This document shows positions 49,018 through 64,000 of a stretch of DNA of 64,000 nt, piece by piece (position 1 is the first letter of the stretch; each line of letters starts with the position of its first letter). The notes below the pieces were generated by a model. It searched no databases, was not told where the DNA came from, and saw only the letters and a list, made by a program, of their open reading frames with translations. Origin of the DNA: Streptomyces tateyamensis (GTDB lineage Bacteria > Actinomycetota > Actinomycetes > Streptomycetales > Streptomycetaceae); contig NZ_PYBW01000016.1 in assembly GCF_003205575.1 (NCBI RefSeq), positions 1 through 64,000 of the forward strand, given 5' to 3'. The translations under genes were made by a program, and so were the position numbers.

Positions 49018-49677
49018 TCAGTCGCTGAGACCGGTGCACCGCAGCGTCAGGTTGAGCCGCCCGCCGGCCAGTCCGGTGTCCGGCCGGTCGGTGTCCGCCA
49101 GCACCCTGGTGACCCCGTGGTAGGCGTACCGGGAGGGGCCGCCGAAGACGAACAGGTCGCCGGAGGCCAGCCGCAGGTCGGTCCACGGCTTCCCCCGGTG
49201 CTCGGGGTTGCCGAACCGGAACAGGCAGCTCGCCCCGATGCTGAGGGAGACCACCGGGGCGTCGCTGCGCTCGTCCTTGTCCTGGTGCAGGCCCATCCGG
49301 GCCTCGGCGTCGTAGTAGTTGACCAGTACCGTGTCGGGGGCGTAGGCCGCGCCGGCCGCCCCGTCCCCGTACGCCTCGGCCACCGCCGCGCGGCCCAGCT
49401 CGACCAGCCGGTCGGGCAGCGGGGCCACCCGGCGGCCGTTCACGTCGGCGGCGGTGCGGGTGTAGCGGTACGGCTGCCAGTGCCAGCCCAGACAGACCGT
49501 CTGCACCGACATCACCCCGCCGTTCGGCAGCCGGGTGCGGTGCATCGGCACCGGCCCGCGGGCCCACTCCCGGCAGGCGGCGACCAGCTCCCGCTGCTGC
49601 TCCAGGGCCAGCCAGTCGGGCAGGTGCACCGCCCCCGGGGCCACGGTGGCCCGCGATCGCGGGAAGAGCTCGGCCAT
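49018..49677 (-). CDS. alkB: AlkB, DNA alkylation-damage dioxygenase
   Basis: Canonical AlkB of 219 aa. Iron ligands H131 and D133 (MGLHQDKDE) and H187 (YAYHGV), with 2-oxoglutarate arginines R207 and R213 in RLNLTLRCTG; the nucleotide-recognition lid shows SVQTVCLGWHWQPYRYTR. It removes 1-methyladenine and 3-methylcytosine damage by oxidative demethylation. The start ATG 49677 follows a run of G. It lies 13 bases after sbnB on the same strand and may be co-transcribed with the biosynthetic operon, though its sequence is that of the ordinary streptomycete repair enzyme. Confidence 0.93.
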   Translation of the reverse strand: MAELFPRSRATVAPGAVHLPDWLALEQQRELVAACREWARGPVPMHRTRLPNGGVMSVQTVCLGWHWQPYRYTRTAADVNGRRVAPLPDRLVELGRAAVAEAYGDGAAGAAYAPDTVLVNYYDAEARMGLHQDKDERSDAPVVSLSIGASCLFRFGNPEHRGKPWTDLRLASGDLFVFGGPSRYAYHGVTRVLADTDRPDTGLAGGRLNLTLRCTGLSD

Positions 49678-49690
49678 CCCCCCATGCTAG

Positions 49691-50713
49691 TCACCGCACC
49701 GCGTCCCCGAAGAAGTCCGCCAGCTCCGCCCCCGACCCGGTCTCCGCCAGCTGCGCGTGCACCCACTGGCCCACCGCCAGGTCCAGCACGCCGAGGCCGA
49801 ACGGGGCGTAGACCGCGGCCCGGGAGGGGTCGCGCACCAGCGTGCCGTTCAGCACGTCGGCGATCGTGCCGTGCACGAAGTCCCGGTGGCCGACCTGCTG
49901 TTCGGCCAGGTGCAGGGAGGTGCGCTCGCGCACCGCGTGGTCGATGTCGTCGGTGATGTTCTGCGCGGCCAGCACCAGTTCGGGGGCCAGGTCGCGCAGC
50001 GACAGGTGCAGCACCACCGGGTTGTGGGCGAGCAGTTCGGGGTCGTGCACGTGCGGCTCGCCGGCCACCGTGGTGAGCACCACCAGGTCGCAGTCGAGGA
50101 AGGCGTCGTCCAGCCGGTCCACCACCTCGACCTCGACCCCGGCCGCGTCCAGGGTGCCGGCGAACCGCTCGGCGTGCGCCCGGTCCAGGTCGAACAGCCG
50201 CAGGCCGTCGATCTGCCAGCCGAGGTCGCGCAGGAACTTCCAGACGTGGCCGGCGATCAGCCCGGTGCCGACCAGCCCGACCCGGCGGGCCCGGCGCTCG
50301 CCGACCAGGGCCTCGGCGCCCAGCACGGCGGAGGCGGCGGTGCGGGTGGCGGAGATGACGGAGGACTCCAGCACGGCGTACGGGTAGCCGGTCTCGGTGG
50401 AGTTGAGCACCAGCACGGCCGAGGCGCGCGGGATGCCGCGGGCCAGGTTCTCCGGGAAGCTGGCGATCCACTTGATCCCGGCCACCTCGAACTCGCCGCC
50501 CAGGTAGGCCGGCAGCGAGATGATCCGGGAGCTGGGCCGGTGCGGGAAGCGCAGGAAGGCGCTGTGCGGGTTGCTGCTGTCCCCGGCCGCGTGCGCCAGG
50601 TAGGCGCGGCGGACCACGTCCACGCAGGTCTCGCGGTGGCCGTCGACCTGCTTGAGGACGTCGGCGCCGGTCAGCACGCGCAGCGGGGGGAAGGTGAGCT
50701 GGGTGTCGGTCAT
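49691..50713 (-). CDS. SbnB-like dehydrogenase for 2,3-diaminopropionate
   Basis: Ornithine-cyclodeaminase/mu-crystallin-fold protein of 340 aa, of the SbnB type. SbnB oxidatively cleaves N-(1-amino-1-carboxy-2-ethyl)-glutamate with NAD+ to L-2,3-diaminopropionate plus 2-oxoglutarate. Seen: GIKWIASFPENLARGIPRASAVLVLN (K81 region of the family), NAD motif VGLVGTGLIAGHV (149-156), LFDLDRAHAERF and LHLSLRDLAPE. ATG 50713 follows GGAG. It lies 17 bases downstream of the SbnA-like gene, its obligate partner. Naming by function rests on this pairing. Confidence 0.9.
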   Translation of the reverse strand: MTDTQLTFPPLRVLTGADVLKQVDGHRETCVDVVRRAYLAHAAGDSSNPHSAFLRFPHRPSSRIISLPAYLGGEFEVAGIKWIASFPENLARGIPRASAVLVLNSTETGYPYAVLESSVISATRTAASAVLGAEALVGERRARRVGLVGTGLIAGHVWKFLRDLGWQIDGLRLFDLDRAHAERFAGTLDAAGVEVEVVDRLDDAFLDCDLVVLTTVAGEPHVHDPELLAHNPVVLHLSLRDLAPELVLAAQNITDDIDHAVRERTSLHLAEQQVGHRDFVHGTIADVLNGTLVRDPSRAAVYAPFGLGVLDLAVGQWVHAQLAETGSGAELADFFGDAVR

Positions 50714-50730
50714 GGCGGACTCCGGGAGGG

Positions 50731-51789
50731 TCAGAGGGCGGCGGACGGGGTGAGCGACCAGGCGGCGGGCGGTGTTCCGGTGCCGAAGGCGGCGGCCACC
50801 CAGGCGGGGTTGTAGACGGTGTCGGCGTAGGCGATGCCGCGGTCGGCGCACAGGAAGGCGACCCGCGGGCGCTCGCCGGCGGCCGGCGGGTGCTCGGTGA
50901 ACCAGTGCTCGATCGCGGCGTACACGCTGCCGGTGGAGCCGCCCGTGTACAGGCCGTGCCGGCGCACCAGGTCCAGGCAGCCGCGCACCGCCCGGGCCTC
51001 CGGCACGATCACCACGTGGTCGATCAGCGCCCGCTCGCACAGCTGCGGGACCAGGCTGGAGCCCAGGCCCGGCAGCCGGCGGGTGGCCGGCGGCTGGCCG
51101 AAGATGGCCGAGCCGGCCGCGTCCACCGCGACCACGGTGGCGCTCGGGTAGGTCTCCTTGACCCGGCGGGACAGGCCGGCGATGGTGCCGCCGGTGCTCA
51201 CCCCGAGGAAGACGTAGTCCAACTCGGGCATCATCCGGGCGATCTCACCGCCCGTCAGTTCGTAGTGCGCGGTCAGCGCGTCGTCGTTGGCGTACTGGTT
51301 GGGCCAGTAGGCGTGCGGGAGCACCCGGCACAGCTCGCGCACCCGGGCCAGTCGGGTGTTCAGGAAGCCGCCGCTGGCGTCGCGCTCGGTGACCTTCTCC
51401 ACCGAGTCGCACATGATGTCCAGGTAGGCCTCGGTGAGCGCGTTGCAGTTGGGGTCGATCACCGGCACGAAGCCGATGCCCAGCGCCCGGCAGAACGCGG
51501 CCATCGAGATCGCGAAGTTGCCGGAGGAGGACTCCACCACCGTGGTCTCCCGGGTGATCTCGCCGCGCTCGATGGCGCGCTTGAGGATCCAGAAGGCCGA
51601 GCGGTCCTTGGAACTCCCGTTGGGGTTGCAGTACTCCAGCTTGGCGTAGAGCTCGATCCGCTCGTCGTCGAGCCGCACCAGCGGGGTCTCCGCGAAGGTG
51701 GCGGCCAGTGCGGCCAACCGGTAGGTCAGCGGGCTGTCCTGGTCGACCGGCGGTTCCGGGGCCAGGGTGGCGGACTTGTGTGTCGGCAT
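50731..51789 (-). CDS. SbnA-like PLP enzyme for 2,3-diaminopropionate
   Basis: Cysteine-synthase-fold PLP enzyme of 352 aa. SbnA condenses O-phospho-L-serine with L-glutamate to N-(1-amino-1-carboxy-2-ethyl)-glutamate. Seen: ETPLVRLDDERIELYAKLEYCNPNGSSKDRSA with PLP Lys61, ESSSGNFAISMAAFCRALG (SSGN replacing the TSGNTG loop of cysteine synthases), and phosphate loop GVSTGGTIAGLSRR. The altered loop and the adjacent SbnB support Dap rather than cysteine synthesis. Start ATG 51789. It follows the condensation enzyme by 65 bases and is part of the biosynthetic operon. Confidence 0.9.
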   Translation of the reverse strand: MPTHKSATLAPEPPVDQDSPLTYRLAALAATFAETPLVRLDDERIELYAKLEYCNPNGSSKDRSAFWILKRAIERGEITRETTVVESSSGNFAISMAAFCRALGIGFVPVIDPNCNALTEAYLDIMCDSVEKVTERDASGGFLNTRLARVRELCRVLPHAYWPNQYANDDALTAHYELTGGEIARMMPELDYVFLGVSTGGTIAGLSRRVKETYPSATVVAVDAAGSAIFGQPPATRRLPGLGSSLVPQLCERALIDHVVIVPEARAVRGCLDLVRRHGLYTGGSTGSVYAAIEHWFTEHPPAAGERPRVAFLCADRGIAYADTVYNPAWVAAAFGTGTPPAAWSLTPSAAL

Positions 51790-51854
51790 GACGCCGTTCT
51801 CTCCCAGTCTCGGTGAGGTTCTGGTGGCGGCACCGGTGGCGGCCGCGAGGGCGG

Positions 51855-53258
51855 TCACCACTGGCCGGTGGCGAAGGCGAGGAGCGCTTCGCGTTCGGCG
51901 GGATCGACCAGGTCGACGGCGGCCACCGGGGTGTCCGGGTCGGCCAGCGCGGCGGCCAGCAGCCGCTCGTAGTGGGCCGCCATCCGAGCCACCGTGGCCG
52001 GCTCGAAGAGGTCGGCGTCGTACTTCAGCGCGACCTTGACGCCGCCGGTACCGGCCAGCACCTCGGCGCTCAGGTCGAACTGCCCCTCCTGCTGCGGCAC
52101 CGCGAAGCCGGACAGCCGCAGCTCGTGGTGGATCAGCTCGGCGCCCGGGTCGCCCAGCGCGAGCAGTTCCAGCAGCGGTTGGAACCGGTTGGCGGCCACC
52201 AGGCTGAACATCGCCTGGAAGACCGGGGTCCGCCCCGGGTCGGCGGCCAGCCCCAGCTCCCCGGGCAGCAGCGGCAGCGGGAAGTCCCGGTGGGCCAGGT
52301 CCTGGCGCACCTGCTCGCCGATCGCGCCGAACAGTTGACGGAAAGTAAGCTGCCGGCCGATCCGCACCCGGTGCGGCAGGGTGTTGACGAAGTAGCCGAC
52401 CGCGTCCTTCATGGTCCGTTCCGGCCGGGTGGTCACCGCGTAGCCGACCAGGAAGTCGGCCTGCGTGGTCCACCGGTGCAGCAGTGCCTGGAAGGTGCCG
52501 AAGAGCACCGCGAACGGGGTGACCGCGGCGGCGGCCGCGGCCGGCCGCAGCCGCTGCACCAGCTCCTCGGGCAGCCGCAGGTCGTGGCTGGCTCCGGCGT
52601 ACCGCTTGCGGGCCGGGCGCTGGTGGTCCACCGGCAGCTCCAGCACCGGCGGTGCGCCGGAGCACACCTCCCGCCAGTAGTCGGCCAGTTCGGCCCGGCG
52701 CGGGGAGGTGAGCAGCTCCTCCTCGGCGTCCACCAGCTCCTGGAACGGGCGGCGCAGCTCGGGCCAGTTGGGCTCGGTGCCGTCCAGTTCGGCCCGGTAG
52801 GCGGTCAGCAGGTCGCCCAGCACGATCACCTGCGAGGCACCGTCGGTGGCCAGGTGGTGTGCCACCACCAGCAGCACCGCGTCGCTGGGCGAGGGGCGCA
52901 GCAGCAGCACCCGGATCGGTCCCGGCGCGGTCAGGTCGAACGGGCGGTTGACCGCCGCATGCGCCCGCTCGTGCAGTTCGGTGTCCGCGGCGCCTGGCAG
53001 CTCGTGCAGCTCCAGCACCTCGATCGGGCCGCGGTGCACCACCCGGTAGGGCGTGCCGTCGACCTCGGTGAACCGGGAGCGGAGCAGCTCGTGGCGCTCC
53101 AGCACCCGCTGGACGGCCCGGCGCAGCGCCTGGTCGTCCACCCGCTGGTGGATCCGGACCGCCATCGCCACGTTGTAGGCCGGGCTGGTGGGCGCCATCC
53201 GGTGCAGGAACCAGAGCGCCTCCTGCCCGGTGGTCAGGGGGAGGTGTTCGCTGCTCAT
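51855..53258 (-). CDS. Free-standing NRPS condensation domain
   Basis: A 467-aa protein that is one complete condensation domain. It starts LPLTTGQEALWFLHRMAPTSPAYNV (C1), has RHELLRSRFTEVDG (C2) and the catalytic HHLATDG at 134-140 (C3), YFVNTLPHRVRIG (C5) and ends soon after the usual C-domain boundary (DPAEREALLAFATGQW). No adenylation or carrier domain is attached. Such proteins accept acyl chains and amines from separate carriers. ATG at 53258 overlaps the ACP stop (TGATG), so it may join the ACP-bound acyl chain to the first amino acid, a lipoinitiation-like step, or form an extra amide with Dap. Confidence 0.93.
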   Translation of the reverse strand: MSSEHLPLTTGQEALWFLHRMAPTSPAYNVAMAVRIHQRVDDQALRRAVQRVLERHELLRSRFTEVDGTPYRVVHRGPIEVLELHELPGAADTELHERAHAAVNRPFDLTAPGPIRVLLLRPSPSDAVLLVVAHHLATDGASQVIVLGDLLTAYRAELDGTEPNWPELRRPFQELVDAEEELLTSPRRAELADYWREVCSGAPPVLELPVDHQRPARKRYAGASHDLRLPEELVQRLRPAAAAAAVTPFAVLFGTFQALLHRWTTQADFLVGYAVTTRPERTMKDAVGYFVNTLPHRVRIGRQLTFRQLFGAIGEQVRQDLAHRDFPLPLLPGELGLAADPGRTPVFQAMFSLVAANRFQPLLELLALGDPGAELIHHELRLSGFAVPQQEGQFDLSAEVLAGTGGVKVALKYDADLFEPATVARMAAHYERLLAAALADPDTPVAAVDLVDPAEREALLAFATGQW

Positions 53259-53521
53259 CAGACCCCGACCAGCTCGTTCAGGTGGCCGGCCAGGCCGCCG
53301 ATGGTGGGGTGGTCCCAGGCCAGGGTGGGGGAGAGCTCCACCTCGAAGCGGTCCTCGATCTGGGCGATCAGGCTCATCCCGTAGACCGAGTCCATGCCGT
53401 ACTCGACCAGATTGACGTCGGGTCGCAGCTGGTCCGGCTCGGTCTCCAGGAAGAAGGCGACCCGCTCGGTGAGCCAGGCGGTGATCCCGGCCACCGAGGT
53501 CTCGACGGTCTGCTCGGACAT
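53258..53521 (-). CDS. Acyl carrier protein
   Basis: An 87-aa carrier protein. The phosphopantetheine Ser45 is in YGMDSVYGMSLI, with a typical four-helix pattern (LRPDVNLVEYGMDS before it, LSPTLAWDHPTIGGLAGHL after). It resembles the ACPs that accept fatty acyl chains from fatty acyl-AMP ligases rather than fatty-acid-synthase ACPs (DSVYGM versus DSLDTV). ATG 53521 has GGGAG upstream. It lies between the dehydrogenase-like genes and the condensation gene, matching its role as the carrier on which the chain is loaded, desaturated and then handed on. Confidence 0.93.
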   Translation of the reverse strand: MSEQTVETSVAGITAWLTERVAFFLETEPDQLRPDVNLVEYGMDSVYGMSLIAQIEDRFEVELSPTLAWDHPTIGGLAGHLNELVGV

Positions 53522-53569
53522 GGTGAACTCCCTAGACAGTGCTGGTGCGTCAGTTGGTGGGGTGGGTGG

Positions 53570-54688
53570 TCAGGACGGGCTGGTGGCCGGCCGTTGCCGG
53601 CGGCGCAGTTCGTCCAGCAGGAGCTGGTCCCGCTCGGCCCGTGCGGCCGGCGAGTCGTTCGGGGGCAGGTCGTGCGGGTGCGGGGCCCGCGCGGTCGGAT
53701 CCCCGAGGCCGGCCAGCCGGTGCAGGGCGGCGGCCAGCCAGTGCGGTGCGGAGCGGAACGGGTCGGCGGACTGCTGCTGGACCAGGCGGCAGGCCTGGGC
53801 GGCCTGCTCGGCCAGCCGCGCGCCGGGTTGGTGCAGCGGGCCGCGCAGGGCGGCCAGCGTGGTGAGGTCGCGCTGGTGCTTCTGGAAGATCGCGTGCTCG
53901 CCCTCGCGCAGGTAGGAGCGGGCGCCGAGCAGCAGCGCGAGCCGGTGCCCGGCCTCCCGGACCAGGACCGGGACCAGTTGCTCGACCGTGGCCGCGGTGC
54001 CCCGGGCCAGACAGCAGTCGGCGATCAGCAGATCGGTGAAGGCCTCGGCCAGCGCCGCCCGGGCGCTGGGCAGCGCGGTGACCGGACGGCCGTACAGCTC
54101 GCGCTGCTCGGCGAAGCGCAGCGTGGTGCGCAGCTGGGTGTCCAGCGCGCCCAGGGTCGCCCCGGCCAGCAGCCGGGCCGCCCGGGCCGGGTCCGCCGGG
54201 CCGGGCAGCAGGGCGTCGGCCGGCACCCGGTGGCCGGTGAAGGCGAGCCGGTGCGGGCGGCAGCCGCGCAGCCCGGGCGTGCGGTAGAACGGCCCGGCCG
54301 GCGGGCGCAGTTCGGCGGGCAGCAGCAGGTACCGGGCGGTGCCGGCCAGCTCCACGGTGAGCAGCAGCGCGCCGGGCCCGGTGGCGTGCACCTGGCCGTC
54401 GAGCAGCAGCGCGCCGTCCACCGGCCGGGCCCGCAGCGGCTCCTCGCGCAGGAAGGCGTAGCCGGCCGGCCGCGGCAGGCCGCTCAGTGCCGGGGCCAGC
54501 GCCCGCCCCAGCACCAGGCCGAGGTCGCGCCCGCCCAGCGCGCGGACCAGCTCCGGGGTGAACCCCAGCTGCACCGCGGGCAGTTCGCCGCGCTCGTCGG
54601 CCGCGACCAGGGCCGCGAAGCCGAGCGGGTTGGCCGCGTCGGCCGGATCGCCGAGCCGGTCGGCGGTCCGGGACAGGGTGGCGGTCAT
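53570..54688 (-). CDS. Acyl-CoA-dehydrogenase-like protein (second, divergent)
   Basis: A 372-aa protein related to the acyl-CoA dehydrogenase fold but much decayed in sequence: GCRPHRLAFTGHRVPADALLP (mid-domain strand typical of ACADs), then an all-helical C-terminal half (TLGALDTQLRTTLRFAEQRELYGRPVTAL with the family RxxFG-like element) and a charged tail. FAD-binding motifs of the N-terminal half are poorly conserved. In pairs of this sort one subunit is often the catalytic partner and the other a support or second desaturase; which holds here is unknown. Its ATG overlaps the stop of the first dehydrogenase (ATGA), so they are probably made 1:1. Confidence 0.78.
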   Translation of the reverse strand: MTATLSRTADRLGDPADAANPLGFAALVAADERGELPAVQLGFTPELVRALGGRDLGLVLGRALAPALSGLPRPAGYAFLREEPLRARPVDGALLLDGQVHATGPGALLLTVELAGTARYLLLPAELRPPAGPFYRTPGLRGCRPHRLAFTGHRVPADALLPGPADPARAARLLAGATLGALDTQLRTTLRFAEQRELYGRPVTALPSARAALAEAFTDLLIADCCLARGTAATVEQLVPVLVREAGHRLALLLGARSYLREGEHAIFQKHQRDLTTLAALRGPLHQPGARLAEQAAQACRLVQQQSADPFRSAPHWLAAALHRLAGLGDPTARAPHPHDLPPNDSPAARAERDQLLLDELRRRQRPATSPS

Positions 54689-56355
54689 GCGCTCTCCTCC
54701 AACTGGCAGTCGAGCAGCGAGAAGAGCCGGCCGGCCTTGTGCTGGTGGCGCAGCCGCTCGGTGAGCTCGGCGACCAGGTCGGCCGGCAGTTCGCCGCTGC
54801 CCGCGCCCAGCTGGCCGAGCAGCCGGATCAGCGCGGCGCGCAGCCAGTCGCCGTGCTGCCAGAACGGCGAGTCGTCGGCGGTGCGGTTGTGCAGCCAGAG
54901 CTGCACGCAGCCGGCTGCCGCGAACAGCACGGTGTAGCGCCGGGCCAGCTCGTAGGCCATGGCCGGCACCTCGCGGGCGGACGGGCGCAGTTCCGCCATC
55001 TCGGTGTGCAGCTGCTCGGCCTGCTCGGCCAGCGCTGCTGCCAGCGGGGCGAAATGAGGGTCGGTCAGCTCGGCCAGGGCGGCGGGCAGGCTCTGCACCA
55101 GGCTGCTGCCGTGCCGGGAGAACAGCGCCAGCCGGCTGGTGTCGGCCGCGGGCAGCGGGTCGGACAGCGTGGTGGCGGCGGCCAGGCCGGCCTGGTCCAC
55201 CCGGGCCCGCCGGTAACCGCGGGCCAGCGCGTCGAACTGGTTGACCAGGGCGTTCAGGTTCACCGCGGTGTTGCCGTCGAAGATGCTCATGATGTGGTGG
55301 TCGCGTTCCAGCTTCTGGAAGCTGTCCGCCTCGGTCGGCTCGGCCAGCAGCAGCGCCGGGCCCAGCTCGCGGGCCAGGTCGGCGATCAACTCCTCGACCA
55401 GGGTCGGCACGAAGGCCTTGACCGCGGCCGAGGCCACGCTCAGCTCGCCGGGCAGCGCGTGCACCGCGCGGGCGGCCACCAGGGTGACCGCCTCGGCCAC
55501 CAGCAGGTCGGCGTAGGCGCCGGCCAGCGCCGGGTTGGCGCCGGTGGCGCTGTTGCGCACCGCCAGGCGCAGCGCGTGGTCGGCGGTGCCCAGCGAGAGC
55601 GCTCCGCACAGCGTGCGGGTCAGCTGCAGGCACTTGAGCACCGTCTCCAGCCCGGTGCCGGCCGCGCCGACCAGCGCGTCGGCGGGCACCTCGGCCTCGC
55701 GGAACTCGATCCCGCTGATGTCCGCACCCCGGATGCCGACCGTGCGCACCGCCGGCAGGCAGCGGTAACTGCCCGGCGCCAGGCGGCGCTTGTCCACCAG
55801 CAGCAGGCTGAAGCCGCGCGGGCCGCCGACCGGCTCGGTGCGGGCCAGCACGCAGACCAGCTGTCCGCGCGAGGCGTTGCCGATCAGCCACTTCTCGCCG
55901 GCGATCCGGTACCAGTCCTCGCCGCCAGAGGTCCGCACCCGGTTGGCCAGCAGGTCGCTGCCATGCTCGCGCTCGGACAGCGCCAGCGAGACCACGCTGC
56001 CGGCCTCCACCTCGCGGGCCAGCTGCGCGGCCTGCTCGGGCCGCCCGGCCAGCCAGACCGAGGCGGCGCCCAGGAAGGTGCCCACGTGGGCCACCGCGAC
56101 GGTCAGGTCGCGGCGGGCCACCAGGCGGACCAGGGCGGCCAGTTCCTCGTAGCTGTGCAGCTCGCCGCCGAGCGCGGCGGGCACGTAGCGGCGGGCCAGC
56201 CCCAGGCCGTCCAGCCGTTGGCAGATCTCGGTGGGGAACTCCTCGCGCTCGTCCAGCTCCTGGCAGCGGGCGAAGGAGAAGATCTGCAGCGGGTCGTGCG
56301 GGTCGCCGAGGCCGCGGTCGAAGCACTCGACGAGTTGGGCGACGGCGGATTTCAC
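54685..56355 (-). CDS. Acyl-CoA/acyl-ACP dehydrogenase
   Basis: An acyl-CoA dehydrogenase-family flavoprotein of 556 aa, longer than the usual 380-400 owing to a C-terminal helical extension (about 400-556). Seen: LARRYVPAALGGELHSYEELAALVRLVARRDLTVAVAHVGTFLGA, FAD motif SLALSEREHGSDLLANRV, WYRIAGEKWLIGNASRGQLV, and DHHIMSIFDGNTAVNLNALVNQFD near the catalytic region. Likely introduces a double bond into an acyl chain on the neighbouring ACP, as dehydrogenases next to fatty acyl-AMP ligases do in unsaturated lipopeptide clusters. An alternative is dehydrogenation of a ureido-amino-acid residue, as for the VioJ/CmnJ type. GTG at 56355 overlaps the ligase stop (GTGA). Confidence 0.85.
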   Translation of the reverse strand: MKSAVAQLVECFDRGLGDPHDPLQIFSFARCQELDEREEFPTEICQRLDGLGLARRYVPAALGGELHSYEELAALVRLVARRDLTVAVAHVGTFLGAASVWLAGRPEQAAQLAREVEAGSVVSLALSEREHGSDLLANRVRTSGGEDWYRIAGEKWLIGNASRGQLVCVLARTEPVGGPRGFSLLLVDKRRLAPGSYRCLPAVRTVGIRGADISGIEFREAEVPADALVGAAGTGLETVLKCLQLTRTLCGALSLGTADHALRLAVRNSATGANPALAGAYADLLVAEAVTLVAARAVHALPGELSVASAAVKAFVPTLVEELIADLARELGPALLLAEPTEADSFQKLERDHHIMSIFDGNTAVNLNALVNQFDALARGYRRARVDQAGLAAATTLSDPLPAADTSRLALFSRHGSSLVQSLPAALAELTDPHFAPLAAALAEQAEQLHTEMAELRPSAREVPAMAYELARRYTVLFAAAGCVQLWLHNRTADDSPFWQHGDWLRAALIRLLGQLGAGSGELPADLVAELTERLRHQHKAGRLFSLLDCQLEESA

Positions 56356-58094
56356 GCGCCCTCCCCGACCGGCTCCGGGCGGCGGTAGCGGGCCCGGGCG
56401 CGCGGGCTGAGCTCCTCGTACAGCGGCTCCAGTGCGCCGTTGACGAAGAGTTCGCGCATCCGGGAGCGCTGGATCTTGCCGCTGGTGGTCCGGCTGACCC
56501 GGCCCGGCTTGAGGAAGACCACGTTGCCCACCGCCATGCCGAGGCTGCGGCGCAGCTCCACCTTGACGGCCTGGGCCAGCTCCGGCAGCGCGGTGCCGTC
56601 CAGCCGGGCGGCCCGCACCTCCTGGACCACCACCAGCTCCTCCAGCGGGGCCGGGGCCGGCACCGAGAAGACGCTGCCCTGCAGGCCGCCGAAGCTGCGG
56701 TGCAGCTCGCCGACCTCGCGCTCCACGTCGTGCGGGTAGATGTTGCGGCCATTGATCGTCATCATGTCCTTGATCCGGCCGGTGACGTAGAGCTCGCCGT
56801 CGTGCACCACGCCCAGGTCCCCGGTGCGCAGGTAGCCGGTACTGCCGTCGGCGGTGGCCGCGCCGAAGACCCGCGCGTTCACCTCGGGCTTGTTCCAGTA
56901 GCCCGCGCTGACCGAGTCGCCGCGCAGCCAGATCTCGCCCACCTGGCCGTCCGGCAGCACCCGGTGGTCGGCCGGGTCGACGATCCGCAGGTCCAGCGAG
57001 GCGGGACGCCCGCAGCTGACCAGCTCCAAGCCGGTCGGCGCCGGCCGGAAGACGTTGCCCTCCAGCTCGGCCGGGTCGACCGTGGTGACGTTCGGGGCCC
57101 GGCCCGGGATGCCCGCGGTGACCCCGAGGGTTGCCTCGGCCAGGCCGTAGGCGGGGCGCAGCGCGGTGGCCGAGAAGCCGGCCGCGGCGAACCGCTCGGC
57201 GAACCGGGCCAGCGTGCGGGCGTGCACCGGCTCGGCGCCGTTGGCGGCCACCTGCCAGCTGGACAGGTCGAGTTCGGCCAGCTGCTGGTCGGTGACCGAG
57301 AGCGCGCACAGGTTGTAGGCGAAGTTCGGCGCGAAGGAGTGGGTGGCGCGGTGCCGCTGGATCAGCCGCAGCCAGGTGTACGGGCGGCGGATGAAGTCGG
57401 TGGGCGGCAGCAGCACCGTGCGCCCGCCCTGGTACAGCGGCAGCAGCAGGGCCGCGATCAGGCCCATGTCGTGGAAGAGCGGGGCCCAGCTGCACACCGT
57501 GTGCTGCTGCTCCAGGGTGAGGATGGCGCGCAGCTCGCCGAAGTTGTGCCGCAGGTTGGCGTGGCTGACCACCACGCCCTTGGGGTCGCTGGTGGAGCCG
57601 GAGGTGTACTGCAGGAAGGCCGGGTCCTGCGGGTCGGCGGCCGGCCAGACCCAGTCGGCCTCGGCCACCTCGGCGACCTCCTCCACCGCCAGGCAGCGCA
57701 CCTCGGTCAGCTGCTCCTGCTCGGCGAACTCGGCCACCTCGGGCAGCGTGGCGCGGTCGGTGAGCAGCAGGCGGGCGCCGCAGTCGGCGACCACGCCGCT
57801 GGTGCGCCGGCGCTGGCTGCTGCCGCGGTCGGGCAGCGGCACCGGGACCGGCACCACCCGGGCGTACAGGCAGCCCAGGAAGGCGGTGACGAACTCCAGG
57901 CCGGTCGGGAAGAGCAGCAGCGCGCGGTCCCCGGGCTCGGCGGTGCGGCGCAGCTCGGCGGCCACCGCCTGGGCGCCGGCGACGAGCTGGCGGTAGGTCA
58001 GGACGCGCTCGGTGTCCCCGGTGGCGAAGACCACGGCCGCGGCCTGCGGGGTGCGCCCGGCGTGGTGCGCGGTCGCTTCGATCAGATCACGCAT
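56352..58094 (-). CDS. Fatty acyl-AMP ligase
   Basis: ANL-superfamily fatty acyl-AMP ligase (580 aa). Core motifs are YTSGSTSDPKG (163-173), WAPLFHDMGLIAALLLPL (207 onward), NGAEPVHARTL, LRPAYGLAEATLGVT and the C-terminal YVTGRIKDMMTINGRNIYPHDVE with SRTTSGKIQR. FHDMGLI with NGAEP and YGLAE is typical of FAALs, which activate free fatty acids as adenylates and load them on an ACP without CoA. ATG at 58094, 9 bases after the MFS gene. The start of the lipid branch of the pathway; chain length cannot be read from the sequence. Confidence 0.93.
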   Translation of the reverse strand: MRDLIEATAHHAGRTPQAAAVVFATGDTERVLTYRQLVAGAQAVAAELRRTAEPGDRALLLFPTGLEFVTAFLGCLYARVVPVPVPLPDRGSSQRRRTSGVVADCGARLLLTDRATLPEVAEFAEQEQLTEVRCLAVEEVAEVAEADWVWPAADPQDPAFLQYTSGSTSDPKGVVVSHANLRHNFGELRAILTLEQQHTVCSWAPLFHDMGLIAALLLPLYQGGRTVLLPPTDFIRRPYTWLRLIQRHRATHSFAPNFAYNLCALSVTDQQLAELDLSSWQVAANGAEPVHARTLARFAERFAAAGFSATALRPAYGLAEATLGVTAGIPGRAPNVTTVDPAELEGNVFRPAPTGLELVSCGRPASLDLRIVDPADHRVLPDGQVGEIWLRGDSVSAGYWNKPEVNARVFGAATADGSTGYLRTGDLGVVHDGELYVTGRIKDMMTINGRNIYPHDVEREVGELHRSFGGLQGSVFSVPAPAPLEELVVVQEVRAARLDGTALPELAQAVKVELRRSLGMAVGNVVFLKPGRVSRTTSGKIQRSRMRELFVNGALEPLYEELSPRARARYRRPEPVGEGA

Positions 58095-58103
58095 GAGGCA
58101 CCG

Positions 58104-59495
58104 TCACTTTCCGGTCTCGATGAGGGCGGGGGAGTCAGTGGCGTCGGCGGGCTCGGCGGGCTCGGCGGCACCGAGGCGGCGCAGCGCCGGGCTGAACACC
58201 GCGGCCAGCGCGAGCAGGGCCATCACGGCGCTGCACGCCAGCACGGTGGGCCGGAACCCGAAGGACTGCAGGGCGAACCCGCCGATCAGCGCGCCCAGCG
58301 GCAGGGTGCCGAAGGCGATGATCGAGACCACGCTGGCGATCCGGCCCTGCAGGTCGTCCGGGGTGACCCGGACCTGGTAGGAGACCACCGCGATGGTCCA
58401 GGCCGCCCCGATCAGCGCCATCGGCGTGATCACCAGGGCGAACAGCAGCGGGTTGTGCAGCAGCACGGTGAGCGGGAAGAGCACCGCCCAGATCAGGTTG
58501 GCGCCGATCACGATGGTCGGCAGGCTGAGCCGCTCCAGCCACCAGGAGGTGGACAGCGCCCCGGCCACTCCGCCGATCCCGGCCGCGCCCATCACCAGGC
58601 CGACCACCGCGGGCGAGACCCCGTCGTGCCGCAGCACGGTGAGCATGCCCAGGGTGAGCACCTCGAAGAGCAGGTTGCTGACCGCGATCACGGCGGCGGC
58701 GGCCCGCAGCCCGCGGTGCTGCCAGAGCCAGCGCACCCCGGCGGCGATCTCCGGCAGCACCTTGCCGCGCTCGCCGGTCCCCGTGCGCTCGGCCTGGAAG
58801 CTCTTGCGGATCGAGGCCAGGGTGGCGAAGGAGACCAGCTGGGAGACGGCGGTGAAGAGCAGCGGCACCCAGAACGCCACCGCCGACAGCGCGCCGGCCA
58901 GCGGCTGCCCGAGCAGGCCGGTGGCCTGCACCCGGGCCTCGTTCTGCGAGATCGCCTGGTCCAGGTGGTCCGGGTGGACCACGTTGCGCACCGCCGCGTG
59001 CTCGGCCAGCCGGTGCACCACGCCCAGGCTCGCCTCGACGAAGGCGACCGCCAGCAGCACCGGCAGCAGCACCTTGCCCGCCACCAGGGTGGCCACCAGC
59101 ACCGCGAGCGCGGCGCACCGGCCCAGGTTGCAGGCCAGCATCAGGCGCTTGCGGTCGAAGCGGTCGACCAGCACGCCGGCGAAGAGCGAGAGCAGCAGCT
59201 GCGGCAGCGCCGCCGCCGCGCCGACCAGGCCGGCCGAGCGGACCGAGCCGCCGGACCAGAGCACGATCAGCGGGTAGGCGAAGGAGGAGACCTGGGAGCC
59301 GAGCGAGGAGAGCGCGGTGCCGCTCCACAGCAGGACGAAGTCCCGGTTGCGGCGCAGCGGACCGGGCCCGGCCCCGGCGGTGTCCGAGGTGGTGCCGGAA
59401 GCTTCCGCGCCGGCAGGTCCGGTGGCGGCAGGTTCGGCAGGGGCGGTTGCGGCCGGGGCCGCGGCGGTCACCGGGTCGAGGGCGTCGAGGCTCAT
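58104..59495 (-). CDS. MFS exporter of the biosynthetic operon
   Basis: Twelve-helix MFS (MFS_3) transporter of 463 aa. A Thr/Ala/Pro-rich start (1-50) precedes LRRNRDFVLLWSGTALSSLGSQVSSFAYPLIVLW, and the loop 2-3 signature is FAGVLVDRFDRKRLMLACN. It probably exports the finished product or gives self-resistance. The ATG at 59495 overlaps the stop of the carbamoyltransferase (ATGA). It is related to, but distinct from, the MFS protein at 24644-25942. Confidence 0.9.
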   Translation of the reverse strand: MSLDALDPVTAAAPAATAPAEPAATGPAGAEASGTTSDTAGAGPGPLRRNRDFVLLWSGTALSSLGSQVSSFAYPLIVLWSGGSVRSAGLVGAAAALPQLLLSLFAGVLVDRFDRKRLMLACNLGRCAALAVLVATLVAGKVLLPVLLAVAFVEASLGVVHRLAEHAAVRNVVHPDHLDQAISQNEARVQATGLLGQPLAGALSAVAFWVPLLFTAVSQLVSFATLASIRKSFQAERTGTGERGKVLPEIAAGVRWLWQHRGLRAAAAVIAVSNLLFEVLTLGMLTVLRHDGVSPAVVGLVMGAAGIGGVAGALSTSWWLERLSLPTIVIGANLIWAVLFPLTVLLHNPLLFALVITPMALIGAAWTIAVVSYQVRVTPDDLQGRIASVVSIIAFGTLPLGALIGGFALQSFGFRPTVLACSAVMALLALAAVFSPALRRLGAAEPAEPADATDSPALIETGK

Positions 59496-60427
59496 GCCTG
59501 GCCCCCGGCGCACCACTCGAGCACGGCCATGGCGCTGGTCAGCTTGTGACCCGCCTGCCAGAAGGCGATGCTGGCCGGTCCGTCCAGCACCTCGGCGGTG
59601 ACCTCCTCGCCGCGGTGGGCGGGCAGGTCGTGCATGAAGACCGCCTTCGGGCTCCGCTCCCACAGCTCGGCGCGCACCTGGAACGGGTCGAAGCGGTCGC
59701 GCCAGTTGGCGTCCGGCTTGTCGGTGCCGGTGGTCTGCCAGCGGGTGGTGTAGATGACGTCCACGTCCCGGGGCAGCTGGTCCAGATCGTGGTGCTCGGT
59801 GACCAGCGAACCGTGCCTGGCGCCCTGCTCGACGGCCCGGGCCAGGTAGTCGGGCAGCAGGCCGTAGCCCGCGGGGGTACGCAGGTGCAGCTCGGTGCCC
59901 GGGTAGCGGGAGAGCGCCAGGGCCAGCGCGGAGGCGGTGTTGTTGCCCTCGCCCAGGTAGAGCACCCGCAGGCCGTCGACCTGCCCGAAGTGCCGCTGCA
60001 TGGTGGTCAGGTCGGTCAGCGCCTGGGTCGGGTGCTCCTCGGTGCTCATCGCGTTGATCACCGGCATCCGGCCCTGGGCGGCCAGCGCCCGCAGGTCGGC
60101 GGAGGGTTCGGCGGTGCGGGCCACCAGGACGTCGATCATCCGGGAGAGTACGTCGCCGGTGTCCTCCAGCGTCTCGCCGGTGTTCAGCTGCAGGTCGCCG
60201 GGCTGGTAGGTGAGCAGCTCGCCGCCCAGGCGCAGGGTGCCGCTGGAGAACGCGGTGCGGGTGCGGGTGGAGGTCCGCTTGAAGTAGACACCCACCACCC
60301 GGCCGGCCAGCGCGCTCCCGGCCGGCCGGTCCTGCTCGGCGAACTCCACGCCACGGGTGACCAACTGGCGCAGGTCGTCGTCGGTCAGGTCCGAGATGGA
60401 GATCAGGTGTCGTGCTGGTGCGGTCAT
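59492..60427 (-). CDS. Carbamoyltransferase, ornithine-carbamoyltransferase-like
   Basis: Aspartate/ornithine carbamoyltransferase-fold enzyme of 311 aa. The carbamoyl-phosphate loop STRTRT (53-58) and HPTQ (132-135) are intact. The amino-substrate residues differ from ornithine enzymes: HCLP is HDLP (266-269), the SMG loop is replaced by TRWQTTGTDKPD (228-239), and the C-terminus reads FWQAGHKLTSAM instead of FDQAENR. A different amine, for example the 3-amino group of diaminopropionate (giving beta-ureidoalanine, as in the viomycin and capreomycin pathways), is the likely acceptor in an operon with SbnA/SbnB. That step is inferred. ATG 60427; its stop overlaps the MFS start. Confidence 0.88.
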   Translation of the reverse strand: MTAPARHLISISDLTDDDLRQLVTRGVEFAEQDRPAGSALAGRVVGVYFKRTSTRTRTAFSSGTLRLGGELLTYQPGDLQLNTGETLEDTGDVLSRMIDVLVARTAEPSADLRALAAQGRMPVINAMSTEEHPTQALTDLTTMQRHFGQVDGLRVLYLGEGNNTASALALALSRYPGTELHLRTPAGYGLLPDYLARAVEQGARHGSLVTEHHDLDQLPRDVDVIYTTRWQTTGTDKPDANWRDRFDPFQVRAELWERSPKAVFMHDLPAHRGEEVTAEVLDGPASIAFWQAGHKLTSAMAVLEWCAGGQA

Positions 60428-60459
60428 CGAGGGCCTTCGTTCGTGTGGGTGAGGGAGGG

Positions 60460-63400
60460 TCAGCGGGCGTTCAGGCGCTCGGCGAGCGCGGCGGCGATCC
60501 GGGCCGAGGCAGCCGGGGAGGCCAGTTCGGCGTGGCCGAACTCGAGCTGGTGCACCGTCAGTGCGCCGCTGAGCAGCGCCTGCCAGGCGGCCGGCTTGGG
60601 GTGCTCGGTCGACTCGGTCCTGGTGGCGACGAACAGCTCCAGGTCGCCGCCCTGGGCCGGGGCCCGGTAGGGCTCGGCGATCCGCTGGAAGTTGAGCAGC
60701 ACCTCGACCAGCCGGTCGGCGGTGCCGGCGTCCAGGTCGGCCAGCTCCGGGTAGGCGGCGCGCAGCACCTCCAGGAAGCGCAGCCGGGGCGCCGGGGTCG
60801 GCGGCTCGTGCTCGGCGCCGGCCGGCAGGATGCCGAGCCCGGCCAGCACCTCGGCCAGCTGGGTGCGCTCGTCGGCGTCGGCGGGCAGCGGCTCGAAGCC
60901 GCGCCAGTCCGGGTAGGCGTCCAGCACCGCGAGCAGCTCCACCTGCTCGCCGGCGGTGCGCAGCTGAGCGGCCATCTGGTGGGCCAGCAGGCCGCCGAAG
61001 GACCAGCCGAGCAGGCGGTACGGGCCGCTGGGCTGGACCTCGCGGACCAGCGTCAGGTAGTCGGCCGCCACCTCCTCGATCGCCGTCGGCAGCTCGGCCG
61101 GCCCGGCCAGGCCCCGGGCCTGCACCGCGTACACCGGCAGCTCGGCCGGCAGGTGCGGCAGCAGGTTGGCGTAGCCCCAGCCGACCGCCAGCCCCGGGTG
61201 CACGCAGAACAGCGGGCGCAACTCCCCGGTGCGGCGCAGCGGCAGCAGGGCCGGGATCGCGGCGGGCCGCTGGTGCCCGGCCAGCCGCTCGGCGAGCTCG
61301 GCCACGGTGGGCGCCTCGAAGACGGTGCGGACCGGCAGTTCGACGCCCAGCTCGGTGCGGATCCGGCTGACCAGCTTGGTGACCAGCAGCGAGTGGCCGC
61401 CGAGCGCGAAGAAGCTGTCGTCGGCCCAGACCTCGGGCAGCTCCAGCAACTCGGCCAGCAGCGCGCACAGCTGCCGCTCACGCTCGGTGCGCGGCGCCCG
61501 CCCGACGGTGCGCCGGGAGTGCTCCGGGGCCGGCAGGCGGCGCTGGTCCAGCTTGCCGTGCGCGGTGAGCGGGAGCTCGTCCAGCACCACGAAGTCGCTG
61601 GGCACCATGTAGTCGGGCAGCGCGTCGGCGGTGTACTTGCGCAGCACCTCCGGCTCGGGCAGGGTCCGGCCCTGCTCGGGGACCAGGTAGGCCACGATCC
61701 GCCCGTCGCGGACCAGGACCGCGGCCCGGGCCAGGTCGGGGTGGCCGGTCAGCACGGCCTGGATCTCGCCGAGTTCGATCCGGAAGCCGCGGATCTTGAC
61801 CTGGTCGTCGGCCCGGCCCAGGAACTCGAGCAGGCCGTCGGCGCTCCAGCGGGCCAGGTCGCCGGTGGTGTACATCCGGGCACCGGGCGCCCCGAACGGG
61901 TCGGGGCGGAACCGGTCGGCGGTCAGGTCCGGGCGGTTCAGGTAGCCGCGGGCCAACCCCGCGCCGGCCAGGTGCAGTTCACCAGCGACGCCGGGCGGCA
62001 CCGGGTTGCCGTGCGGATCCAGCACGTAGGCACGGCCGTTGTCGATCGGGCGGCCGATCAGCGGTTCGGCACAGGCCCGCGCGTCCAGCATGACGGCGTC
62101 CACCGTGGTCTCGGTGGGGCCGTAGCAGTTCACGGTGCTGGTGCGCTCGGCCGTCCGCAGCCGCTGCCACAGCGCCGGATCGACCGCCTCGCCGCCCACC
62201 CAGAGCAGCGCCGGGGCGTGCTCCGGCTGGTCGAGCAGGCCTGCCTCGACCAGAACGGCGGTGAAGGACGGGGTGATGTCCAGGAACTCCAGCCGGTGCT
62301 CGGTGACGTGGCGCACCACGGCCCGCGGGTCGAGCCGGGTCTCCTCGTCGATCAGGTGCACCCGGTGGCCGCCGAGCAGGCAGCTCAGCGGGTCGATCCA
62401 GGCGTCGAAGGTGACGCCCGCGGTCAGTGCCACGCCTACCTTGCGGCCGGCGAAGTGACGCTCCATCAGCAGCCGTCGGTTGGTGCCGGCCAGGTCGCTG
62501 AGGCTGCGGTGCTCGATCAGCACGCCCTTGGGGCGGCCGGTGGAGCCGGAGGTGTAGATGACGTAGGCCGGGTGGTTCGGGTCCGGGCGCAGGCCCAGGT
62601 CGGTGTCCGGGTGGTCCGGCACCGGCTCGTCCAGCAGCAGGACGGGCAGTCCGTCCAGGGTGTGCGCGGTGCGGCCGATGGCCAGGCCGAGCACCGGGCG
62701 GGCGTCCTGGAGCATCTGGGTGGTCCGGGAGGCCGGGGCGGCGGGGTCGAGCGGCAGGTAGGCGGCGCCGGCCTTCCAGACGGCGAGTTGGGCGACGACC
62801 AGGTGGCTGGTGCGGGGCAGGGCGAGGGCGACGCAGCGCTCGGGGCCGGCGCCGCGGGCGCGCAGTTCGCGGGCCAGGCGGTTGGCGCGGCGGTTGAGCT
62901 CGGCGTAGCTGAGCTGCTCGTCGACGGCGACCAGGGCCACCGCGTCCGGGGTGTCCCGGACCTGCTGCTCGAACAGCTCCGGGAAGGAGGGCAGCGGGCT
63001 TCCCTGCTCGGTGGCGTTCCAGTCGACCAGGATCCGGGTCAGCTCCGCGGGGGTGAGCAGCTCGATCTCGGAGAGCGGCAGCCCGGGGTCGGCGGCGACC
63101 GCGGCCAGCAGGCGGCACAGCCGGTCCGCGAGCCGGGCGACGGTGTCGCGGTCGAACAGGTCGGTGGCGAACTCCACGCTGCCGCCGTCGGGGGAGAAGG
63201 TGAAGGAGAGGTCGAACTTGGCGCTCTCCTCGCCCAGCGCCACCGGGGTCACGCTCAGCCCCGGCAGCTGCGGCGCCTGCTCGGTGCTCTCCGGGGTGAA
63301 GGCCACCATCACCTGGAAGAGCGGGTGCCGGTTCATCGCCCGGGTCGGGTTGAGCACCTCGACCAAGCGCTCGAACGGCACGTCCTGGTGCGCGAAGGCG

Positions 63401-64000
63401 GCCAGGTCCACCGCCTTCACCCGGGCCACCAACTCGCCGAAGGCCGGGTTGCCGGTCAGGTCGGTGCGCAGCACCAGGGTGTTGACGAAGAAGCCCACCA
63501 GGGGGTCGAGCGCGCCGTCGGTGCGCCCGCCGACCGGGGTGCCGAGCGGGATGTCGGTGCCCGCCCCGAGCCGGCCGAGCAGGGCGGCCACCGCAGCCTG
63601 GGCCACCATGAACGGGGTGGCGTCGCAGCGCCGGGCCAGCTCGGCCAGTGCGCCCGGCTCCAGCGCGAACTCCACCAGGTCGCCGCGGTTGCTGCTCTCC
63701 ACCGGACGCGGTCGGTCGGTGGGCAGCTCGATCAGCTCCGGCAGCTCGGCCAGCGCGCTGCGCCAGTGGTCGAGCTGGGCGCTGATCAGGCTCTCCGGGT
63801 CGGTCTCGGTGCCGAGCAGCTCGCGCTGCCACAGGGTGTAGTCGGCGTACTGGACCGGCAGGTCGTCCCAGGAGGGGGCCGCTCCGGCCAGCCGGGCGGT
63901 GTAGGCGGCGGCCAGGTCGGCCGCCAGCGGGGCCAGCGAAAGGCCGTCGGCGGCGATGTGATGGATCGTCAGGACCAGGGTGTGCTCCTGGGCCGACTCG
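60460..64000 (-). CDS. Nonribosomal peptide synthetase, terminal module C-A-PCP-TE (5' end outside window)
   Basis: The frame enters from the right edge, so at least 1180 codons are seen and the start is not in the window. Domains in order: condensation (HHIAADG near 63943-63963, LPTDRPRP, FVNTLVLRTDLTG), adenylation (YTSGSTGRPKG near 62540, YTTGDLARW, then RIELGEIQAVL), PCP (FFALGGHSL, Ser codon at 61390-61392) and type I thioesterase (GWSFGG, Ser codon at 61000-61002; GHAELA). Signature residues read by eye against PheA are D-A-D-D-L-V-C-V-D-K; three acidic pocket positions suggest a basic or polar-nitrogen side chain. The thioesterase shows this is the last module, releasing the product. 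First visible gene of the operon. Confidence 0.95.
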   Translation of the reverse strand, partial: ESAQEHTLVLTIHHIAADGLSLAPLAADLAAAYTARLAGAAPSWDDLPVQYADYTLWQRELLGTETDPESLISAQLDHWRSALAELPELIELPTDRPRPVESSNRGDLVEFALEPGALAELARRCDATPFMVAQAAVAALLGRLGAGTDIPLGTPVGGRTDGALDPLVGFFVNTLVLRTDLTGNPAFGELVARVKAVDLAAFAHQDVPFERLVEVLNPTRAMNRHPLFQVMVAFTPESTEQAPQLPGLSVTPVALGEESAKFDLSFTFSPDGGSVEFATDLFDRDTVARLADRLCRLLAAVAADPGLPLSEIELLTPAELTRILVDWNATEQGSPLPSFPELFEQQVRDTPDAVALVAVDEQLSYAELNRRANRLARELRARGAGPERCVALALPRTSHLVVAQLAVWKAGAAYLPLDPAAPASRTTQMLQDARPVLGLAIGRTAHTLDGLPVLLLDEPVPDHPDTDLGLRPDPNHPAYVIYTSGSTGRPKGVLIEHRSLSDLAGTNRRLLMERHFAGRKVGVALTAGVTFDAWIDPLSCLLGGHRVHLIDEETRLDPRAVVRHVTEHRLEFLDITPSFTAVLVEAGLLDQPEHAPALLWVGGEAVDPALWQRLRTAERTSTVNCYGPTETTVDAVMLDARACAEPLIGRPIDNGRAYVLDPHGNPVPPGVAGELHLAGAGLARGYLNRPDLTADRFRPDPFGAPGARMYTTGDLARWSADGLLEFLGRADDQVKIRGFRIELGEIQAVLTGHPDLARAAVLVRDGRIVAYLVPEQGRTLPEPEVLRKYTADALPDYMVPSDFVVLDELPLTAHGKLDQRRLPAPEHSRRTVGRAPRTERERQLCALLAELLELPEVWADDSFFALGGHSLLVTKLVSRIRTELGVELPVRTVFEAPTVAELAERLAGHQRPAAIPALLPLRRTGELRPLFCVHPGLAVGWGYANLLPHLPAELPVYAVQARGLAGPAELPTAIEEVAADYLTLVREVQPSGPYRLLGWSFGGLLAHQMAAQLRTAGEQVELLAVLDAYPDWRGFEPLPADADERTQLAEVLAGLGILPAGAEHEPPTPAPRLRFLEVLRAAYPELADLDAGTADRLVEVLLNFQRIAEPYRAPAQGGDLELFVATRTESTEHPKPAAWQALLSGALTVHQLEFGHAELASPAASARIAAALAERLNAR

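What the first reader, a model, noticed from the sequence alone, without database searches (positions are those of the whole stretch)
49691..64000. Compact operon predicted to make an unsaturated lipopeptide containing 2,3-diaminopropionate
The genes seen are FAAL, ACP, two acyl-dehydrogenase-like proteins, free-standing C domain, SbnA/SbnB and a C-A-PCP-TE NRPS with a carbamoyltransferase-like enzyme and exporter. Each family has a known role, but I do not recall a described product with this set. FAAL, dehydrogenase and ACP genes occur in unsaturated lipopeptide pathways (ramoplanin, laspartomycin types), while SbnA/SbnB plus a carbamoyltransferase recalls the ureido-alanine branch of viomycin/capreomycin. 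Joining both logics in one tight operon would give an acylated Dap or beta-ureidoalanine peptide.
Basis: partly seen in the sequence, partly recalled or inferred. Interest (0 to 1): 0.8.

Follow-up and report, generated by a model that had tools for sequence, protein, structure and literature searches.

The report
Ureidoalanine-starting unsaturated lipopeptide gene cluster
This stretch of an actinobacterial (Kitasatospora-like) chromosome is the end of a large gene cluster that most likely builds a fatty-acid-tipped peptide whose first building block is the rare amino acid beta-ureidoalanine, and comparison of about 300 related genomes suggests which enzyme pocket recognises that amino acid.

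Summary
The genes are real and correctly placed. On the minus strand: NRPS, L-Dap-type carbamoyltransferase, MFS exporter, FAAL, two acyl dehydrogenases, ACP, free-standing C domain, SbnA, SbnB. The operon is the 3' part of a larger cluster broken over three contigs (C399-C78-C67). Relative G063 carries the full syntenic version.

The carbamoyltransferase has the published Dap-transcarbamylase signature (TRWQTTG + HDLP), not the ornithine one, so SbnA/SbnB + this enzyme should make beta-ureidoalanine (Uda). The first adenylation domain has the code DAWQFATIDK. In 298 genomes, all 31 with a domain of this clade also carry the carbamoyltransferase (50/298 background). 24 of the 32 domains lie within 30 kb of it, so this A domain is probably Uda-specific.

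Best reading: FAAL/dehydrogenases/ACP supply an unsaturated acyl group, the free-standing C domain puts it on Uda, and a roughly nine-residue peptide with two dehydrobutyrines and an Asn-type residue follows. Oddities: module 2 has no A domain, two dehydrating C domains have EG instead of DG, and the second dehydrogenase is eroded in this strain.

Nearest known logics are rotihibin/laspartomycin initiation and viomycin/capreomycin precursor supply. No described product was found in the open papers searched. New variant of a known kind; product untested.

The parts
60460..64000 (-). 3' part of NRPS3 (continues to contig position 71193): A-fragment/PCP, three C-A-PCP modules, thioesterase
   Evidence: order matches G063 NRPS3
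59492..60427 (-). L-2,3-diaminopropionate carbamoyltransferase (DPTCase type), OTC fold family; TRWQTTG at residue 228 and HDLP at 266
   Evidence: signature from PMC4581275
58104..59495 (-). MFS exporter (MFS_3 / EntS-like)
   Evidence: next to the carbamoyltransferase in many relatives
56352..58094 (-). Fatty acyl-AMP ligase (FAAL)
54685..56355 (-). Acyl-ACP/CoA dehydrogenase 1 (556 aa, N, M and C domains)
   Evidence: 69% identical to G063
53570..54688 (-). Acyl dehydrogenase-like protein 2, shortened by several in-frame losses (372 aa vs 511-513 aa in G029/G063)
   Evidence: no Pfam match alone
53258..53521 (-). Free-standing acyl carrier protein (GMDS motif)
51855..53258 (-). Free-standing condensation domain (HHLATDG), proposed acyl-ACP to ureidoalanyl-PCP transfer
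   Evidence: ACP-C-SbnA-SbnB order kept in L081, L096, L102
50731..51789 (-). SbnA: PLP enzyme, N-(1-amino-1-carboxy-2-ethyl)-glutamate synthase; PLP Lys in SSKDR
   Evidence: TIGR03945 above cut-off
49691..50713 (-). SbnB: NAD-dependent enzyme releasing L-Dap; conserved end of the cluster
   Evidence: TIGR03944 above cut-off; same last conserved gene in G029 and G063

Best explanation
A lipopeptide biosynthesis cluster in which precursor supply and chain initiation are encoded together. Steps: (1) SbnA and SbnB turn O-phospho-L-serine and glutamate into L-Dap. (2) The carbamoyltransferase adds a carbamoyl group to give L-beta-ureidoalanine (Uda). (3) FAAL loads a fatty acid on the free-standing ACP, and dehydrogenase 1, with or without its shortened partner, introduces a double bond. 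(4) The A domain of NRPS1 (contig C399) loads Uda on PCP1. (5) The free-standing C domain moves the acyl group from ACP to Uda. (6) Module 2 has no A domain and is loaded in trans, by A1 (giving Uda-Uda) or by the Asn-type A domain of NRPS2. (7) NRPS2 adds two Thr-type residues, each dehydrated to dehydrobutyrine by the dehydrating-type C domain that follows, then an Asn-type residue that the TauD-type hydroxylase may oxidise. (8) NRPS3 adds a Thr-type residue and three of unassigned specificity, and its TE releases the peptide. (9) The MFS protein exports it. Shown by sequence and comparison: gene content, enzyme signatures, domain order, A1-carbamoyltransferase linkage. Inferred: every reaction, the order of loading, and the product.
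For: SbnA/SbnB pass equivalog cut-offs. The carbamoyltransferase carries the TRWQTTG and HDLP motifs that PMC4581275 gives for Dap transcarbamylase, instead of ornithine's DxxxSMG and HCLP. A1 code DAWQFATIDK is Gln-like, and Uda is a Gln isostere (the isostere point is general chemistry). All 31 of 298 genomes with an A1-clade domain (>=415 bits) have the carbamoyltransferase; 24 of 32 domains lie within 30 kb of it and the other 8 are on separate contigs. 28 of 28 fetched linked domains read DA[WL]Q.[AG]T[IV]DK, while 9 of 12 fetched domains outside that set are Ser-type DVWH.SL.DK. The one genome with this code and no intact enzyme, G022, keeps a 133-aa remnant of it beside SbnA/SbnB. SbnB is enriched in carbamoyltransferase genomes (46/50 vs 155/298). 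The ACP-C-SbnA-SbnB block persists when the fatty-acid source is FabG/KASIII instead of FAAL/dehydrogenases. NRPS2's C domains match the dehydrating AmbE and McyA C domains at about 1e-54 against 1e-23 for the next and carry the K[SN]VLLAAH motif (PMC11342130).
Against: No product or activity is known. NRPS1, most of NRPS2 and the start of NRPS3 are on other contigs, joined only by synteny with G063, and both breaks fall inside repeated Thr-type A domains. The two dehydrating-type C domains have EG where DG is reported as invariant. Dehydrogenase 2 is eroded in this strain. An A domain with code DAWQCATIDK also sits in another NRPS cluster of the same genome (C46) with no carbamoyltransferase or SbnA/B in the stretch read. 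The genome counts are not corrected for relatedness.
Confidence: 0.75

Rival explanations
1. Free Dap, not ureidoalanine, is the incorporated residue: one of the NRPS3 A domains with acidic pockets (D[STA]DDxG[YC]VDK) takes Dap, and the carbamoyltransferase serves another purpose.
For: SbnA/SbnB-type enzymes occur without the carbamoyltransferase in many genomes (SbnB in 155, carbamoyltransferase in 50 of 298); two own and two G063 A domains have acidic pockets that fit a cationic side chain.
Against: The carbamoyltransferase sits in the operon, overlaps the exporter gene, and keeps all the published Dap-transcarbamylase positions checked. A1 tracks it across genomes. Dap could be used in addition to, rather than instead of, Uda.
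Confidence: 0.1
2. A1 activates another amide or ureido amino acid (Gln or citrulline), and the carbamoyltransferase makes citrulline or the Dab-derived ureido acid.
For: The code resembles Gln codes. Rotihibin's first, lipidated residue is citrulline and tools call its A domain Glu or Ser (PMC8552735), as might be expected of a pocket like this. Own C46 has the code without the enzyme nearby.
Against: The carbamoyltransferase signature differs from ornithine (DxxxSMG) and from the single Dab enzyme (TRWQSMG) in PMC4581275. Linkage to it is complete among close relatives of A1, and SbnA/SbnB are in the same operon.
Confidence: 0.1
3. The cluster is decaying in this strain and makes little product, or only a saturated lipopeptide.
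For: Dehydrogenase 2 has lost about 140 residues in several places. Clear ruins of the same kind of cluster exist in G022 and L124.
Against: All other genes are full length, in frame, coupled and strongly biased at codon position 3; the shortened gene itself stays open with GC3 0.96. Dehydrogenase 1, the likely first dehydrogenase, is intact.
Confidence: 0.12
4. The product is an amphiphilic siderophore rather than an antibiotic-type lipopeptide: a beta-hydroxylated Asp/Asn residue binds iron and the EntS-like MFS protein exports it.
For: MFS with an EntS-family match, a TauD-type hydroxylase, and several Asn/Asp-type modules with two hydroxylases in related clusters.
Against: Only one Asn-type module here and no other chelating group visible; no receptor or uptake genes in the operon.
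Confidence: 0.15

Closest known systems
Rotihibin (rth) cluster, Streptomyces scabies (PMC8552735)
   Same: FAAL - dehydrogenase - dehydrogenase - ACP in that order; first, acylated residue is a ureido amino acid (citrulline); module 2 has no A domain and is proposed to be loaded in trans; MbtH; an Asn hydroxylase.
   Different: No SbnA/SbnB or carbamoyltransferase; C domain is part of the NRPS; epimerase in module 1; separate single-module NRPS with the trans A domain; reductive release instead of TE; ABC transporter instead of MFS.
Laspartomycin/glycinocin, friulimicin, taromycin, malacidin initiation (FAAL:ACP:C-III, reviewed in PMC9113097)
   Same: FAAL, one or two dehydrogenases between FAAL and ACP, free-standing ACP; dehydrogenases 1 and 2 are about 30% identical to each other in G063 and relatives, like Tar5/Tar6.
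   Different: C domain is free-standing, not on the first NRPS module; TE is at the end of a long NRPS, not on a dimodular protein; exporter is MFS, not DptMN-type ABC; no calcium-binding motif seen.
Viomycin/capreomycin and zwittermicin precursor supply (SbnA/B-type enzymes + Dap carbamoyltransferase; PMC4581275, PMC12400406)
   Same: Dap synthesis followed by carbamoylation to beta-ureidoalanine; an A-less module with precedent for trans loading (capreomycin).
   Different: Those are not FAAL lipopeptides; the tuberactinomycin product has beta-ureidodehydroalanine inside a ring, whereas here Uda is predicted as the first, acylated residue.
Dehydrating (CmodAA) condensation domains: AmbE, albopeptide AlbB, corallorazine Crz1-C2 (PMC11342130, PMC10880069)
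   Same: AmbE is among the closest solved relatives by sequence; [K/R]xVLxAAH motif; placed after Thr-type modules.
   Different: Active-site motif is [CS]HxxLEG instead of (H)HxxxDG, where DG is reported as strictly conserved.

Membership tests
L-Dap transcarbamylase (DPTCase) | (T/S)RWQTTG in the 240s loop and HDLP instead of HCLP | tested here: met
   TTRWQTTG from residue 227, HDLP from residue 266; motif from PMC4581275
L-Dap transcarbamylase (DPTCase) | Carbamoylates Dap rather than Orn or Dab | not testable with these tools
   needs enzyme assay
SbnA/SbnB Dap synthesis pair | Both proteins above NCBIfam equivalog cut-offs | tested here: met
   TIGR03945 389 vs 350 bits; TIGR03944 416 vs 327 bits
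[quoted passage not shown]
[quoted passage not shown]
   NRPS1 starts with its A domain; C is a separate 467-aa protein
[quoted passage not shown]
   TE ends a protein of at least four modules; the operon's exporter is MFS; no ABC exporter recognised among the cluster genes read on C67 and C399
Dehydrating CmodAA condensation domains | Closest to AmbE/McyA and [K/R]SVLLAAH motif | tested here: met
   (own domains KSVLLAAH and KNVLLAAH)
Dehydrating CmodAA condensation domains | DG of the HHxxxDG motif strictly conserved | tested here: not met
   own domains read CHPVLEG and SHVILEG; same in G063
Rotihibin-type clusters | Module 2 without A domain | tested here: met
   C 607-1034 then PCP 1066-1130 in NRPS1, no AMP-binding domain between
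Rotihibin-type clusters | Dab transaminase, separate trans-acting NRPS and terminal reductase | tested here: not met
   TE instead of reductase; none of the others recognised among the genes called in the operon or the C399 stretch
Tuberactinomycin (viomycin/capreomycin) clusters | Capreomycidine synthesis and ureidodehydroalanine-forming enzymes | not tested
   no reference sequences were at hand; none noticed in the cluster

The most novel reading that the evidence does not exclude
The A-domain clade with code DA[WL]QxAT[IV]DK is a general beta-ureidoalanine code. It marks a large, undescribed actinobacterial family of peptides that begin with acyl-ureidoalanine, of which this is the FAAL/dehydrogenase branch; here A1 also acts on the A-less second module, giving acyl-Uda-Uda followed by two dehydrobutyrines made by EG-type dehydrating C domains.
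Probability: 0.3. Interest if true: 0.65.

Novelty: new variant of a known kind. Interest (0 to 1): 0.5.

Why it matters
Uda-activating A domains appear not to be recognised by name: none of the papers opened gives this code, and rotihibin's first A domain, which takes the related residue citrulline, was called Glu or Ser by prediction tools. A code supported by genomic linkage would let genome miners call ureidoalanine in many clusters (the carbamoyltransferase is in 50 of 298 Streptomycetaceae genomes searched). The cluster also offers a free-standing acyl-transferring C domain, an A-less module and variant dehydrating C domains that can each be tested in vitro. If the product is active it would be a lipopeptide scaffold not described in the papers that could be searched.

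Tried and rejected
Ordinary ornithine carbamoyltransferase or a resistant ArgF copy: rejected on the 240s-loop and HDLP motifs. SbnB presence alone as evidence for linkage: weak, because 155 of 298 genomes have it, so the A1-carbamoyltransferase linkage and the operon were used instead. L124, first taken as a further cluster, is only a relict. G022, a seeming exception to the linkage, is a decayed cluster with a carbamoyltransferase remnant. Classing the free-standing C domain as starter type by solved relatives failed: best hits are mixed C domains, so its role rests on gene context. Literature searches for ureidoalanine/albizziine lipopeptides, FAAL + Dap + carbamoyltransferase sets and related terms gave no described product. 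Comparison with MIBiG or antiSMASH could not be run. No structure predictions were made, because the alignments allowed for them would have been too shallow.

Full report
Observation. The window is positions 1-64000 of contig C67 (71193 bases) of a 7.46 Mb, 73% GC genome in 439 contigs. Its nearest cluster relatives are Kitasatospora: G029 corresponds to Kitasatospora sp. MBT63. On the minus strand the genes run NRPS3, carbamoyltransferase, MFS, FAAL, dehydrogenase 1, dehydrogenase 2, ACP, C domain, SbnA, SbnB with overlaps or gaps of at most 65 bases. Families were confirmed with Pfam and NCBIfam, and the FAAL by its closest solved structures.

The cluster is larger than the window. NRPS3 runs to the contig end. 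In G063 the whole set is contiguous: MbtH, NRPS1 (1191 aa), NRPS2 (3240 aa), NRPS3 (5537 aa), then the same tail of genes to SbnB, with a TauD-type hydroxylase divergently placed upstream. G029 has the same tail. In our genome the missing parts are on C399 (hydroxylase, MbtH, NRPS1, start of NRPS2) and C78 (rest of NRPS2, start of NRPS3). Both breaks fall in Thr-type A domains, and no separate contig with the missing piece was found, so the joins rest on synteny.

Precursor. SbnA and SbnB pass equivalog cut-offs. The carbamoyltransferase scores below the ornithine cut-offs. Ornithine enzymes read TDVWxSMG and HCLP; this one reads TTRWQTTG and HDLP, as do nearly all of the 59 relatives found in named genomes, apart from two distant ones that keep the ornithine 240s-loop motif and a few with small variants. 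A review of the family gives (T/S)RWQTTG and HDLP as the mark of the Dap enzyme of viomycin and zwittermicin biosynthesis (PMC4581275). Beta-ureidoalanine is therefore the expected precursor.

Where it goes. Pocket codes were read by aligning A domains and taking the ten usual positions. NRPS1's A domain reads DAWQFATIDK in ours and G063, and the same code appears in L081, L086, L088, L096 and L102 beside carbamoyltransferase, SbnA and SbnB. In 298 Streptomycetaceae-type genomes (same family as the window), 50 have the carbamoyltransferase. All 31 genomes with an A1-clade domain of at least 415 bits are among these 50 (32 domains; 24 within 30 kb, 8 on other contigs; hypergeometric 2.5e-29, not corrected for relatedness). 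The 28 linked domains fetched read DA[WL]Q.[AG]T[IV]DK; of 12 others fetched, nine read as Ser pockets, one DIWAFGFIDK, and two are exceptions. One exception, G022, is a decayed cluster with a carbamoyltransferase fragment, SbnA, SbnB and a free C domain. The other is a second NRPS cluster in our own genome (C46), which might borrow Uda or use another residue. Uda is an isostere of glutamine, which fits a Gln-like code; that point is inference.

Initiation. In FAAL lipopeptides the dehydrogenase genes lie between FAAL and ACP and the starter C domain is on the first NRPS module (PMC9113097). Here the C domain is a separate protein between ACP and SbnA. In L081, L096 and L102 the same ACP-C-SbnA-SbnB block follows FabG and KASIII instead of FAAL and dehydrogenases (FabG and KASIII named from their sequences by eye), so the block looks like a unit that puts an acyl group on Uda whatever the acyl source. 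G009 and G040 have FAAL, two dehydrogenases, ACP and the carbamoyltransferase in a different layout, with SbnB and SbnA close by in G040, and L123 has FAAL, carbamoyltransferase, SbnA and SbnB homologs. The two logics thus occur together more than once.

Elongation. NRPS1 is A-PCP-C-PCP: module 2 has no A domain, whereas in G062 the second A domain is present and Asn-type. Trans loading of A-less modules is known from capreomycin (PMC12400406) and proposed for rotihibin (PMC8552735). NRPS2 has two C domains closest to AmbE and McyA with the KxVLLAAH motif but [CS]HxxLEG in the active site; PMC11342130 reports DG as strictly conserved in this class. They follow Thr-type modules, so two dehydrobutyrines are expected. 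Residue 5 is Asn-type (DLPKSGEVAK), residue 6 Thr-type by its partial sequence and by G063. Residues 7-9 (DSDDSGYVDK, DVFSVAFVYK, DADDWGCVDK; the third letter of the two acidic codes was set by eye because the aligner left a gap) are not assigned. NRPS3 ends in a TE.

Dehydrogenase 2. It is 372 aa against 511-513 in G029 and G063, with several in-frame losses, yet has GC3 0.96. Whether it still works, perhaps only as a partner of dehydrogenase 1, is open.

Conclusion. Closest relatives by logic are rotihibin and the laspartomycin group for initiation and viomycin/capreomycin/zwittermicin for precursor supply. No described product was found in the open literature library; antiSMASH/MIBiG could not be consulted, so a known entry cannot be excluded.

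Noticed in passing
G000:C46:62130-63350 (L209, L215-L216): A second NRPS cluster in the same genome has an A domain with the related code DAWQCATIDK, with PanD-like, TauD-like and MFS genes but no carbamoyltransferase or SbnA/B in the stretch read; it might share the Uda supply.
   Followed up: partly
L081, L086, L096, L102, G009, G040, G062: A widespread group of NRPS clusters combines the Dap carbamoyltransferase, MFS, the DAWQFATIDK-type A domain and DLPKVAEVGK-type (Asn-like) modules, in most with one or two TauD-type hydroxylases; I could not name a product.
   Followed up: partly
L217-L218 (G022) and L124 (Kitasatospora sp. MAA19): Decayed versions of this kind of cluster: truncated NRPS pieces, carbamoyltransferase fragments, and in L124 scraps of dehydrogenase 1.
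   Followed up: partly
window 53570-54688: Dehydrogenase 2 has lost about 140 residues in several in-frame steps but keeps codon bias and its operon position.
   Followed up: partly
L066:3-2240 (NRPS2, first C domain): The C domain that accepts from the A-less module reads HHIACDE instead of HHxxxDG, also in G063.
   Followed up: no
G000:C388:41244-44651 and C364:42318-43955: The same genome has further dehydrogenase genes 35-38% identical to dehydrogenase 1, as a pair on C388, suggesting other unsaturated-lipopeptide clusters.
   Followed up: no
window 46810-49677: Downstream of SbnB lie an AlkB-family dioxygenase gene and a large membrane-protein gene that do not appear in the G063 or G029 stretches searched, so the cluster probably ends at SbnB.
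   Followed up: partly
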